Assembly (NCBI GenBank): GCA_001598975.1
Contig: BBXU01002758.1
Location: 27,132 to 91,131, forward strand
DNA: 64,000 nucleotides
Source of the DNA: Parachlorella kessleri
Taxonomy: Eukaryota > Chlorophyta > Trebouxiophyceae > Chlorellales > Chlorellaceae
Direction: 5' to 3'
Made by a program: the position numbers and the translations under genes. Position 1 is the first letter of the stretch, and each line of letters begins with the position of its first letter. This document shows positions 39,738-45,210 of the stretch, piece after piece. The notes under the pieces are model-generated. The model saw nothing but the letters and a program-made list of their open reading frames with translations, was not told the DNA's origin and did not search any database.

Positions 39738-42700
39738 TCAAGCCGCCATGTTTTTGAATGCACCCCAGACGGAGTTGTCGATCCTCTTCACCATCGCCTT
39801 GATCTGCTGGCCGGGGCCAAGCTCAAACAACTCCTTCTTGCCTGCAGCAGTGCCGAAAGACGAACCCGCTGGGTGCAATCTCACACATACTGGTGGTATG
39901 CCAGAAGCAGGTAGGTAGGGAGCTTCCTCAGGCTGTGGGCAGTCTAGTGAACCATGCTTGACTAGCAGACAACCACAAGGTTGGTTGACCTTGTACTACC
40001 ATATCGTTACCAAGACCTGCCACCTAAGCTTATGGCATTTTGTGAGGGTGGACTTCTGCACCATGGGCCTTGACCGCAAAAGTCAGCCCACAAGTAGCCA
40101 CACCGCAGCTATTTTTGCTTCCAGATCCCACCCACCTGCCCCAACGAGCTTCTTGATGGTCGCCTCCCACTGCACCGGCTCCACCAGCTGGCGAGGCAGC
40201 ATGGCCTGCAGGGCATGGCACAGCACAGCAGCGCTCAGCGCAGCAGGCAAGGCAGCTGGGTAGAGCCCACCTCTTTACCAACCCCACGGCAGTCCCTCAA
40301 ATGACAATAAGACAAGTAGTTCAGCAGCAACAGGTGCGGCTCCGCCAGCGGCAGCAGCACAAAATACGATAGCAGCCTTCCCTGAAGAGCTGCCCCAGGG
40401 TTTAAAACCGGGCCGTTCCAGCTAGCTGGACCCAGCTGCCATGGCAGGCACCCACACTGTGCACCACCAGCCCCTTGCCTGGATGTCGTCAGCGGTGGTG
40501 AAGGGCTCTGCGGTCACGTTGGAGTAGACGGGGATACGAGGGTCCCTGATGGTCACACTGGACAGCACCTGCGCTCATGGGGGGGCGCAGACAACGGGCA
40601 TGTCTGGTGGCAGGCTGCGAGGCGAGATACCAGTTGCTCTCAAACTGGGTGAGAACCTGCTTGTGACCTGCCTGGACAGTCACACTGACTCCTTGTATAT
40701 AGTGCTAGAGGTCCTTAATAGCCATGCTGGGCACAGCCTAGACATCATGAGGAGTTTATCACAAGTACAAGTCGGACCATCACATCTGGACTGCTTTCGC
40801 CGCCCGCTAAAGGCATGTGGAGGGAGGACGATGCGGGGCACCTGGCGGCTGGAAAAGCCCTGACTGGCAGCCAAGGCGTCACTCCGTGGCACCTTCCACC
40901 CACCCACCCAACCCACCTCTCACTGTCATGCACCAAACTCCACGCCATGGTCATAAGCGTCCCTGGCTAACCGACTGAGCGGGCTGTTGGAGTCTTGACC
41001 GCCCCTTGGCTCATGTCGAGGCCCTGGACCACCCCTGGAGTCCTCATGTCAACTCACAAAGTAGCGTCCCAAGCACCCGGCGACGCCCACCCATGCACCC
41101 ATCCCCAAACATGCGGTGCTGCCAGCAGCAGCCCACCCCGGCTCTGGCTGCTTACCTCCGTCAGGGCGTCCCTGGCGGGCTGCATGAGGGGAGTGTGGAA
41201 GGCGCCGCTGACCGCGACCGGCACCGCCTTGAGCGCGCCGCGGGCGGTGGCCAGGCGCTGGGCCTCCTCCAGGGCGTCCTTGTGGCCCGAGATGACGCGG
41301 CCCTGGGGGAAGAGGAAGTTGGCCAGCTGGCAGACGGCCTCAGGCATCTTGGCGCGCACCTGCGGGGCAGCCAGGGCAGGGCAGGGCAGAAGGGTTGCCA
41401 GGCAAGGCAGTGAGGGGGCGGGGAGGGGAGGCGCCCAAGAAACCAGGGTTGCTTGGCTCGCGCCTGGACTGGAGCATCATGAAGGGGTATCCAGAACAGG
41501 AAAATAGAGGCCATTGTCAACTGCACAAGACGCTCACCTTTTAGCCCTGGCAGGGGACGCAACCAACACCAACATACCAACCTTTCCAGCCACCACCTCC
41601 ATGCCGGTGGCCCTCCCAGGCCTGCATCTTACTTGCCCACCACTGGTGGCACACGCAGCATGCAGTGCCCTGGCAGATACCTACCTCCTTGCAGAGGGTC
41701 TCCAGATCTGCGTGACTGAGCGCACGATTAAATGATGCGTCCAACCATGACACATCTTGTTTTACTTCTTTGACCCACCCACTGCCTTTCAGATGGCCTC
41801 CAGGTCTGCGTCGTTCAGGCCGACCAGTAGTGGTACATAAACCATGACTACTACAATGACAAATCGCTGTCCCGCCCACCTCCTTGCAGATGGCCTCCAG
41901 GTCAGCATCATTCAGACCGACCACCGACAGCATGCCATGCGGGCGGCCCATGCCCGCGGCCGCAGCCATGCTCTCCGCACGGACCTTCACCACCTGCGAC
42001 ACGCCGGTGCAGCGCAGGCAGCTTGGCCCAAGTAGGCCCCGACTGGCACAGAAAGCCGCCCCATGGAAGGGTTGCTAAAGGGGCAGAGTGGCCGCGGCAA
42101 GTGCACTCCATTCACAGTTTATGAGCGGTACCCTGGCACGCATACAGCCGCCCAGTCGAAAGAGAGCGCTACGCCTCACCTTGAGCCCATCCTCGAAGCT
42201 GATGGCTCCTGCGAACACCAGCGCGGTGTACTCCCCCAGCGACAGCCCCGCGGTGGCGCTGCAGCTCTCCACGGCGCCGGGGTTCTGGGCGCGCAGGCGC
42301 TCCACCGCGGCCAGGCCGGCCACGAACAGAGCAGGCTGCAGGGGAGGGGCGGGCAGGCTAAACAAGTTAGGTTGTGAAGCGGCAGACAAAACAAACACAC
42401 CGGAGACTTGCAGCAGCAGGCCAAAACAAATGGGATATATACCGGGGTAGGCAGCCAAGCACAGGAGGAGACGCAGCCACTTGCATGGGCATCTACACAA
42501 AACAGGCCCACGACACCAATCAAATGCCGAAGCACGACCAGCTCCCGCCGAGCAGGCACGCTGTCCTAGGTGCCTAGTGCCGCTCCAGGTGTAGCCCCAG
42601 TGCGTGTTTCTAGCTGGGTGTACCTGTGAGTAGACGGTGTTGTCGAGCTTCTCCTTGGGCCCCTCCTGGCACACCTCCAGCAGGTCGTACCCCAAGATGG

Positions 42701-43371: not shown

Positions 43372-45210
43372 CTGGGTAGGGGTGCTTGTAGTCGATGGCC
43401 CAGGCCTTGATCCTGTCCAGCCCGTAGTCATACAGCGCCCACCAGCACCCAACATCCGGGTGCGGCTGCCGCATCTGCATGCACCGTCGCAGCGATGCAG
43501 TGGCAAGGCATGATAGAGCGCCTCTGGAGTTGCCATGCAGGGGCTGGCTGGCTGTGAGCAAGGGGTTCTCATTGCCAGGCTATACAGGCAAGGGGCTGCT
43601 ACCCAGTATGCCTCCTGACGAAGAGCACATACAGCGGTAAACACAAGCAATATCACCCCTCGTATCTCGGACTTGCCCCCCCCCCCAACACTTCAAAGGC
43701 CCCAATCTTGGGAACGCCGCTTTACATCTCATCTCATGCCGGCGGTTTGGCTATCACTAACCCGGACACCCACTACACATCCCTGCTGGTCCCCTATCCT
43801 CTAATGGCAGCAGCACCAGCACCCTGTTCTGCCAGCGGACAGCATGAGATAGGTGAGGCTCTGTCACCCCTAAATCTACACCCAAATCCAGTCCAAATGC
43901 CTGGCAAACTTACCTCTCACATGCGCTCACCGATATCTTCCTCTCTCAGAGCCAGCAGCTTGGCCCCAACCCCCTCCCCTTCCCCCCATGCCCCCTGCAG
44001 CCCAGCCACCACCCCAGCCTGCCCACATCCGCACCTTGGGCACGCCAGCGTACTTCTCCTCCAGCGCCAGCAGCTTGGCCCGCACCGCGTCATCGTCCGT
44101 GGCCACCTCCACCGGCAGATGCTTGCCGGGGTTGAGGTACGGGTCGTAGTTGTCCGTGCGGATACTAGGGTCAGCGCCACGGGACTGCATCCGGGGCCAA
44201 TGTGTTAGTGTCAAATAGCAGTATCTAGGTAGGGTTAGGCGACAAGGAACAGCATGTACGGGTCTACATTTCAGCACTAGCTGCGCACCTTGTTACAGCG
44301 AATTACAAAGTGCCAAGAAGGCAGCTGGAACCTGGGGAAAGGAGCGCCCCCCAAACCGGACCGCACCAAACACCTCCGCACCCCTCAGCACTGCCACCCA
44401 CCAGCTGTTACCCATAGAGCCCACCAGCTGTTACCCCGTATACTCCTGAGAGACATTCCACCAGGCATTCATTCACCCAGGCACCCTGCTATGTTCCCCC
44501 CTCCCCACTCTCAGCCCTTGAAGTCGAACTCGTCATTCCTCATGGGGACCCACGCTTTGGTGACATACCACCAGATAGAATGGCATCCACTTCCACAGCA
44601 GACCCTGCTTAACCACCTGGAACCTCGCCTGCAGGGCCACCCACCAGCAGGTACTCATACAGCTCAAGGTAGCCGTCGTAGTGCGCCAGGTGGGCTGCCC
44701 TGTGGAGGGGGGTCCAGCCGCGGTCGTCCCTCTGGTTGATCTCTGCGCCGTTGTTCAGCAGGTGGTGCATCTGCAGAGAGCAGGGAGCGTCCTATATGCA
44801 GGGCCCGCTGCTCAGCCTTGCAAGATCTTGCCCGAGTTGCTGCCAGGCAGCAGCGGTCAGGTCACAGCGCACGTTGTACAGCAAGCCCCCCATACCATGT
44901 CCAGCTGCTTGTAGGTGGTGGCGAAGTGGATGGGCGCCCCAGCGCCGTTGTCCTGTGTGATGTAGTAGGGGTCGGTTGTCATGATATTGTTCAGTGCCTC
45001 AGGGTCGCCCAGGCGCACAGCGCTGTAGAAGGCGATGGGAGGGTTCTTGGGGTTGGGAGGGTACCTGCGAAGGCCAGGCAGCTGGCATCAAGACTCCATA
45101 GCGTTGCTAGACCTCTTAGCTTGGAAAGCTTCAGCTAAAGGAGTACTGCTCGGTGGAGTTCAGCCATCATTGAAGACCCACCTCCCGCAGGCAGTCATGT
45201 CCCTCGGCAT
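43372..45210 (-). CDS. Ankyrin-repeat exons, probable N-terminal part of the ankyrin–MCAT gene
   Basis: Ankyrin repeats are protein-binding modules. From the small first exon (ATG at 45210, MPRDMTACGR), the frame passes to IAFYSAVRLGDPEALNNIM, GAGAPIHFATTYKQLDMMHH, LLNNGAEINQRDDRGWTPLH, HYDGYLELYEYLLSRGADPS and DPYLNPGKHLPVEVATDD, giving about three repeats. The last exon, to 43372, reads PHPDVGCWWALYDYGLDRIK then AIDYKHPYP. Its donor (CCCAG|GTGAGA) leaves phase 1, which matches the acceptor at 43103 to give HPYP-E-VAWRKRVEEERK, the start of the MCAT exon. If not spliced there, the frame stops at 43349 after a few residues. An alternative upstream exon, 45916–45614, basic and Ser/Arg-rich, could also join in phase and would provide a plastid-targeting sequence. 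I know no characterised protein of exactly this kind. Confidence 0.65.

What the first reader, a model, noticed from the sequence alone, without database searches (positions are those of the whole stretch)
39738..45210. In-frame fusion of ankyrin repeats to malonyl-CoA:ACP transacylase
The last ankyrin exon ends at 43372 with DYKHPYP plus one base and a good donor (CAG|GTGAGA). The first MCAT exon starts at 43102 after CCCTTGCAG and supplies the missing two bases, giving HPYP-E-VAWRKRVEEERK. Without this junction the ankyrin frame stops within eight codons, and MCAT would begin with a basic/acidic segment that is not a plastid transit peptide. MCAT is normally a stand-alone enzyme, so an ankyrin-bearing form could tether fatty-acid synthesis to a partner.
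Basis: partly seen in the sequence, partly recalled or inferred. Interest (0 to 1): 0.75.

Follow-up and report, generated by a model that had tools for sequence, protein, structure and literature searches.

The report
Ankyrin-fused malonyltransferase conserved in green algae
The green alga carries one gene in which a protein-docking ankyrin domain is joined to an enzyme that loads malonyl building blocks; the same joined gene is found in many green algae, and it may be the missing loader for their giant polyketide-making enzymes.

Summary
The fusion is real. On the minus strand, 13 exons (45210 to 39738) join in frame into a 540-aa protein: ankyrin repeats, a charged helix, then a malonyl-CoA:ACP transacylase (MCAT). 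An NCBI protein of Parachlorella kessleri equals residues 5-540 exactly. Of the 120 relatives listed (295 found), 114 match both domains in this order. The glutamate made by the split junction codon is kept in 39 of 40 aligned relatives.

It does not group with plastid MCATs; a separate plastid-type gene lies on contig C22. The fused MCAT groups with human mitochondrial MCAT (100/98; one animal row, long branch), yet no presequence is evident by eye. The same genome holds multimodular polyketide synthase loci with KS, KR and ACP domains and no detected AT. Best explanation: a cytosolic trans-acting malonyl loader for these synthases, docked by ankyrin. Location, loading and docking are inferred; co-occurrence with such synthases is unresolved. 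Cecchin et al. 2019 already proposed a cytoplasmic MCAT for the Chlorella vulgaris synthase; the searches I ran showed no paper on the ankyrin fusion.

The parts
45182..45210 (-). exon 1, start codon at 45210 (MPRDMTACG..)
   Evidence: splice model; MPRDM-type start in many relatives
44896..45064 (-). exon 2, ankyrin part
44645..44770 (-). exon 3, ankyrin part
44035..44184 (-). exon 4, end of the last ankyrin repeat and what follows
43372..43474 (-). exon 5, last exon before the junction, ends HPYP plus one base, donor CAG|GTGAGA
43103..43371 (-). junction intron (269 bases, phase 1); split codon G|AG = Glu
   Evidence: E in 39 of 40 aligned relatives
42921..43102 (-). exon 6, charged linker helix and start of the MCAT domain (FPGQGSQ)
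42624..42749 (-). exon 7, MCAT
42180..42335 (-). exon 8, MCAT with active-site motif GLSLGE
41880..41993 (-). exon 9, MCAT (VKVRAESM, invariant Arg)
41156..41359 (-). exon 10, MCAT (GAFHT)
40479..40568 (-). exon 11, MCAT, followed by a GC donor
40136..40205 (-). exon 12, MCAT
39738..39841 (-). exon 13, MCAT end and stop codon

Best explanation
The gene makes one protein: an N-terminal part of about 190 residues with ankyrin repeats (Pfam matches at residues 25-118), a charged helix of about 30 residues with a short disordered stretch, and a C-terminal malonyl-CoA:ACP transacylase. Most likely it works in the cytosol as a free-standing (trans-acting) acyltransferase. The MCAT part takes malonyl from malonyl-CoA onto its active-site Ser and passes it to the many ACP domains of the giant AT-less type I polyketide synthases; the ankyrin part holds it on the synthase, and helix and hinge let it reach ACPs of successive modules. 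Shown here: the fusion, its conservation, the kept catalytic residues, a second plastid-type MCAT, and synthase loci without detected AT in the same genome. Inferred: cytosolic location, loading of the synthase ACPs, docking through ankyrin.
For: Fusion and conservation. Catalytic residues: GQG, the Ser of GLSLGE and the Arg of VKVR are invariant and the His of GAFHT at least 90% in 40 rows (roles recalled from E. coli FabD). No evident presequence: 24 of 40 rows begin within 15 residues of a GRYPP-like motif, 8 begin 16-138 residues before it, and in 8 the motif was not found. Separate plastid-type MCAT on C22; one search lists such genes also in Chlorella vulgaris, Auxenochlorella, Gonium, Bryopsis, Coccomyxa and land plants. 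Synthases without AT: KS, KR and ACP matches crowd on C130 and C1058-C1061 (ACP matches over cut-off 16 and 23, counted exon by exon); no PF00698 match there at E up to 10; no AT in the 10 long C130 frames scanned; a model built from MCATs finds nothing above chance on 70 kb of C130 (best E 0.86) while finding six open frames of each MCAT gene. Some algae with the fused protein have published type I synthases: C. reinhardtii and Monoraphidium neglectum, Gonium, Auxenochlorella. Model: mean pLDDT 90.1, pTM 0.59, low-confidence hinge at 218-224. Literature: chlorophyte multimodular synthases lack AT (PMC4661987; PMC7073580); a cytoplasmic MCT proposed to compensate in C. vulgaris (PMC6972661).
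Against: No targeting predictor was run and no location data seen. The MCAT domain is of mitochondrial type. Co-occurrence is not clean: Micractinium conductrix and Dunaliella salina have the fused protein but 0 T1PKS in PMC7073580, as has Helicosporidium, whose entry is a partial fusion; Trebouxia has the fusion while Trebouxia gelatinosa is listed with 0 and the related Asterochloris with none. That list is unreliable downwards: 0 for Volvox and for Chlorella variabilis, where one search gives 1 and 2. In the other direction, Ostreococcus and Micromonas have synthases said to lack AT, but no entry of that name is among the 120 listed (many entries are unnamed; 175 hits were not listed). The AT search is insensitive to split exons: at its default E-value PF00698 found one exon of this gene and none of C22. 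No physical, genetic or expression link between this protein and a synthase was found.
Confidence: 0.45

Rival explanations
1. It is the MCAT of mitochondrial fatty-acid synthesis: the green-algal form of the eukaryotic mitochondrial enzyme, with an ankyrin head and a non-standard import signal.
For: Best solved relative is human mitochondrial MCAT (253 bits against 198 for E. coli FabD); grouped with it at 100/98; top fold match 2c2n, TM 0.94 by target length.
Against: The start MPRDMTxTGRYPP is conserved and holds an acidic residue, unlike a presequence (judged by eye). The plastid-type C22 protein also scores best to human MCAT (215 bits against 191). The tree holds one animal sequence, on a long branch and of odd letter make-up, and no other mitochondrial MCAT.
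Confidence: 0.25
2. It tethers plastid fatty-acid synthesis to a partner.
For: Same enzyme family as the plastid MCAT.
Against: A separate plastid-type MCAT gene exists; no transit peptide seen at the conserved start (by eye).
Confidence: 0.1
3. Cytosolic MCAT whose ankyrin part is for regulation or for a partner other than the synthase (membrane, carboxylase, chaperone).
For: Ankyrin repeats bind many partner types (recalled); nothing here identifies the partner; co-occurrence with synthases is not clean.
Against: No other cytosolic ACP acceptor is known to me in green algae (recalled).
Confidence: 0.15
4. Two separate genes wrongly merged: an ankyrin protein ending PYPGETSSSR and an MCAT starting at 43145.
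For: Both frames are open; some public models end just past the same splice site (P0121, P0122, P0124).
Against: 114 of 120 listed relatives match both domains, at least five of them with transcript-type names; junction Glu kept in 39 of 40 rows; charged linker after the junction in 40 of 40.
Confidence: 0.03

Closest known systems
Human mitochondrial malonyl-CoA:ACP transacylase (MCAT, PDB 2c2n / 8csp)
   Same: catalytic domain, 43% identity over 307 columns; same group in the tree
   Different: no ankyrin domain in the solved chain; mitochondrial by its record title; here no presequence is evident
Plastid MCAT of plants and green algae (Arabidopsis EMB3147; P. kessleri C22 gene)
   Same: same enzyme family, GLSLGE and GAFHT motifs
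   Different: separate clade (100/99); about 46% identity in six-by-six comparisons; diverse N-terminal leader and no ankyrin match in the 120 listed of 7999
Trans-acting acyltransferases of bacterial trans-AT PKS (DisD 3sbm; PksC 5dz6)
   Same: free-standing malonyltransferase fold; proposed role
   Different: lower score than FabD/MCAT (155 bits for DisD, 139 for PksC); no ankyrin in the solved chains
Cytoplasmic MCT of Chlorella vulgaris (Cecchin et al. 2019, PMC6972661)
   Same: proposed to supply the AT missing from the PKS/FAS I; probably the orthologue, since C. vulgaris P0005 has the fusion; gene identifiers were not matched
   Different: the paper's text holds no 'ankyrin' (0 occurrences)

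Membership tests
Malonyl-CoA:ACP transacylase (FabD/MCAT) | family model score over cut-off | tested here: met
   TIGR00128 fabD 267.2 against 260.9; PF00698 102.4 against 32.7
Malonyl-CoA:ACP transacylase (FabD/MCAT) | catalytic Ser, His and malonate-binding Arg | tested here: met
   Ser and Arg invariant, His at least 90% in 40 rows; roles recalled
Malonyl-CoA:ACP transacylase (FabD/MCAT) | enzyme activity | not testable with these tools
   needs an assay
Ankyrin-repeat protein | ankyrin repeats over cut-off | tested here: met
   PF00023, PF12796, PF13637, PF13857, PF13606 over cut-off
Mitochondrial-type MCAT lineage | groups with animal mitochondrial MCAT apart from plastid type | tested here: inconclusive
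   grouped at 100/98 in a 55-row tree, but with a single animal row on a long branch: provisional
Mitochondrial-type MCAT lineage | mitochondrial location | not tested
   no predictor or location data; start judged by eye
Plastid MCAT | member of the plant/algal plastid clade | tested here: not met
   outside that clade, 100/99
trans-AT of a trans-AT PKS | genome holds PKS modules without integrated AT | tested here: met
   absence limited by search sensitivity
trans-AT of a trans-AT PKS | loads the ACPs of that PKS | not testable with these tools
   needs purified proteins
trans-AT of a trans-AT PKS | occurs together with such a PKS across species | tested here: inconclusive
   from published lists only: agrees in some species, not in Micractinium, Dunaliella, Trebouxia, Helicosporidium; Ostreococcus and Micromonas not named among the 120 listed

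The most novel reading that the evidence does not exclude
Green algae took the eukaryotic mitochondrial-type malonyltransferase, dropped its presequence and gave it an ankyrin docking head, turning it into the trans-acting loader of their giant AT-less polyketide synthases. The ankyrin part would then be a eukaryotic docking solution for a trans-AT assembly line, and this gene the unidentified AT supplier of the zygospore-wall synthase PKS1. If the entry P0057 is from Prasinoderma (Prasinodermophyta), the fusion may go back to the root of the green lineage, with loss on the way to land plants.
Probability: 0.37. Interest if true: 0.75.

Novelty: new variant of a known kind. Interest (0 to 1): 0.55.

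Why it matters
Published work says that the giant synthases of green algae lack acyltransferase domains (PMC4661987) and that the AT is presumed to be another gene (PMC7073580). This gives a conserved candidate, single-copy in this genome, with a possible docking part, testable in Chlamydomonas reinhardtii (P0051, CHLRE_02g088250v5), where loss of the synthase disturbs zygote development (PMC7073580). It also suggests that two MCATs of different ancestry coexist in green algae, which lipid-pathway maps of these biofuel algae should keep apart.

Tried and rejected
Two merged genes: rejected by conservation. Chloroplast LTD/GDC1-type ankyrin protein: my first guess from memory, dropped once the homologue search showed ankyrin-MCAT fusions. 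Poly(A) signal TGTAA as evidence for a gene end: none between the two parts, but none between 39738 and 36000 either, so uninformative. Recent duplicate of the plastid MCAT: rejected by the tree. A third AT gene on C246 (E 0.41): its plus-strand frames show no MCAT continuation by eye. Ankyrin evolving more slowly than MCAT (67.8% against 64.5% mean identity over 101 full fusions, ankyrin higher in 73 of 101): the set was fetched by ankyrin and linker words, so it is biased.

Literature. No held paper has the string Cre02.g088250 in its text (that this is the same gene as CHLRE_02g088250v5 is by naming convention, recalled). Ankyrin with MCAT or PKS terms: listings (15-20 rows of 32, 28 and 252 papers) showed nothing on the fusion; of these I read passages in PMC10726701 and PMC8448359. 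Searches (listing; listing; listing). Passages only: PMC12633428, PMC3890519, PMC6399242, PMC6652019, PMC10952756; PMC12712428 had no occurrence of the terms; none settles the PKS content of Trebouxia. PMC4661987: abstract, passages, section 5. PMC7073580: passages and section 25. PMC6972661: passages and section 16. Heimerl 2018 is not held; what it says is taken from citing papers.

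Full report
Setting. The window is a piece of a eukaryotic genome (G000, 50.9 Mb in 1642 contigs, contig C1425). A protein that NCBI names as from Parachlorella kessleri equals residues 5-540 of the protein spliced here, letter for letter, so the organism is P. kessleri or extremely close; this is inferred.

The gene. On the minus strand, 13 exons between 45210 (ATG) and 39738 (end of the stop codon) give 540 residues. The introns are GT-AG but for one GC-AG. Exon 5 ends at 43372 with HPYP plus G; exon 6 starts at 43102 with AG; the split codon is Glu. 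Without splicing the ankyrin frame adds GETSSSR and stops. In this genome the ankyrin part has no other close copy: further matches reach 41% identity at most and look like ordinary ankyrin proteins.

Is the junction real? Three lines say yes. (a) The NCBI model has the same junction. (b) A search that scored only residues 1-232 (ankyrin and linker) but admitted only proteins of 0.55 to 1.75 times the full length found 295 proteins, 120 listed. Of the 120, 114 match at least 80 residues of the ankyrin part and 100 of MCAT, ankyrin first in all 114; five of the other six carry shorter MCAT matches and one (P0073) none. At least five of the 114 have transcript-type names (P0026, P0031, P0038, P0039, P0041); two of these, P0038 and P0039, lack one or both of the later MCAT motif strings that I looked for. 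(c) In 40 of the 120 that I chose and aligned, the junction residue is E in 39 and Q in one, followed in all 40 by a charged stretch (at least eight K or R in the first 32 residues). Some public models are ankyrin-only: of 115 further entries listed by a search with the ankyrin and linker part alone, 8 match MCAT, many being fragments. Coccomyxa subellipsoidea P0121, Cymbomonas P0122 and P0124 end shortly after HPYPG, which is what reading into this same intron gives; that they are truncated models, not isoforms, is inference.

Distribution. Named listed relatives are green algae, from Chlorella and Auxenochlorella to Chlamydomonas reinhardtii (CHLRE_02g088250v5), Dunaliella, Bryopsis and Pycnococcus; many entries are unnamed metagenome proteins. 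P0057, labelled PRCOL, also has the fusion; if PRCOL is Prasinoderma coloniale (recalled), that is Prasinodermophyta, outside Chlorophyta. No listed entry is named as a streptophyte; 175 further hits were not shown. One ankyrin entry bears a Pelagomonas label (P0150) and may be contamination. No ankyrin match occurs among the 120 listed of 7999 relatives of the stand-alone MCAT.

Which MCAT is it? The genome has one other MCAT gene, on C22. Its reading frames show a stand-alone enzyme with a leader-like stretch before the domain, and its best relatives are stand-alone enzymes of algae and land plants. In a 55-row tree (22 fused, 21 plastid type, 10 of 78 usable planctomycete loci, human MCAT, E. 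coli FabD), fused proteins form one group (99/97), plastid type another (100/99), and human mitochondrial MCAT joins the fused group (100/98). The human branch is long (1.61), its letter make-up is odd, and it is the only mitochondrial row, so this is provisional. The solved-structure scores point the same way but less sharply: fused 253 bits to human against 198 to E. coli; C22 also scores best to human, 215 against 191.

What would it load? KS, KR and ACP matches crowd on C130 (about 28-88 kb) and on C1058 to C1061. Ten long frames of C130 hold KS, DH, KR, ACP and one ER-type piece and no AT. PF00698 finds nothing on these contigs at E up to 10, and a model built from MCATs finds nothing above chance on 70 kb of C130 while finding six open frames of each MCAT gene. 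PF00698 missed most exons of the true MCAT genes, so the absence is strong, not absolute. This fits published statements that multimodular chlorophyte synthases lack AT (PMC4661987) and that the AT is presumed to be another gene (PMC7073580). Cecchin et al. 2019 suggested a cytoplasmic MCT for this in Chlorella vulgaris (PMC6972661, section 16). C. vulgaris has the fused protein P0005.

Does it travel with such synthases? Only published lists could be used. For: C. reinhardtii and Monoraphidium neglectum, Gonium and Auxenochlorella have both, and the streptophyte Klebsormidium is listed without type I PKS. Against: Micractinium conductrix, Dunaliella salina and Helicosporidium have the fusion (the last a partial entry) and 0 T1PKS in one list; Trebouxia likewise, with Asterochloris at none. 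That list also gives 0 for Volvox and Chlorella variabilis, where the other gives 1 and 2. Ostreococcus and Micromonas have synthases but no entry of that name is among the 120 listed. Unresolved.

Shape. The AlphaFold2 model from the 40-row alignment has mean pLDDT 90.1 and pTM 0.59: a confident ankyrin part, a helix at 188-217, a low-confidence hinge at 218-224 and a confident MCAT (P0001 numbering). The uncertain mutual placement of the two parts suits a flexible tether, but does not show one.

Mechanism and weight. Shown: fusion, conservation, catalytic residues, a second MCAT, synthases without detected AT. Inferred: cytosol, loading of synthase ACPs, docking by ankyrin. The mitochondrial rival remains the strongest, since the catalytic domain looks mitochondrial in type. 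The plastid reading is weak. The merged-genes reading is contradicted.

Novelty. Enzyme and ankyrin repeats are known; the cytoplasmic loader idea is in print; the fused proteins sit in databases under general names. In the searches named under Tried and rejected I saw no paper on the ankyrin-MCAT fusion, on its spread over green algae, or on its mitochondrial-type ancestry; most subscription papers are not held. Hence a new variant of a known kind, of moderate interest, with a clear test in Chlamydomonas.

Noticed in passing
window 41680-41720, 41778-41818, 41875-41915: Three tandem copies (41 bases; two are 73% and 78% like the first; spaced 97-98) of the 3' end of MCAT exon 9 with its donor side; the first two lie inside the following intron.
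   Followed up: partly
window 38062-38838, minus strand: Part of a CCDC47 (PAT complex subunit) gene downstream of the MCAT end (PF07946).
   Followed up: partly
window 46927-47778, plus strand: Open frame with a leucine-rich look upstream of the gene, no Pfam match at E 0.001.
   Followed up: no
G000 C130 about 28-88 kb; C1058-C1061: Multimodular type I polyketide synthase loci without detected AT domains; runs of two to three ACPs.
   Followed up: partly
   Followed up: no
P0121 (Coccomyxa subellipsoidea), P0122, P0124: Public ankyrin-only models that seem to run into the junction intron and so hide the fusion.
   Followed up: partly
P0057: Fusion in an entry labelled PRCOL, perhaps Prasinoderma coloniale (Prasinodermophyta), which would make the fusion older than Chlorophyta.
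   Followed up: partly
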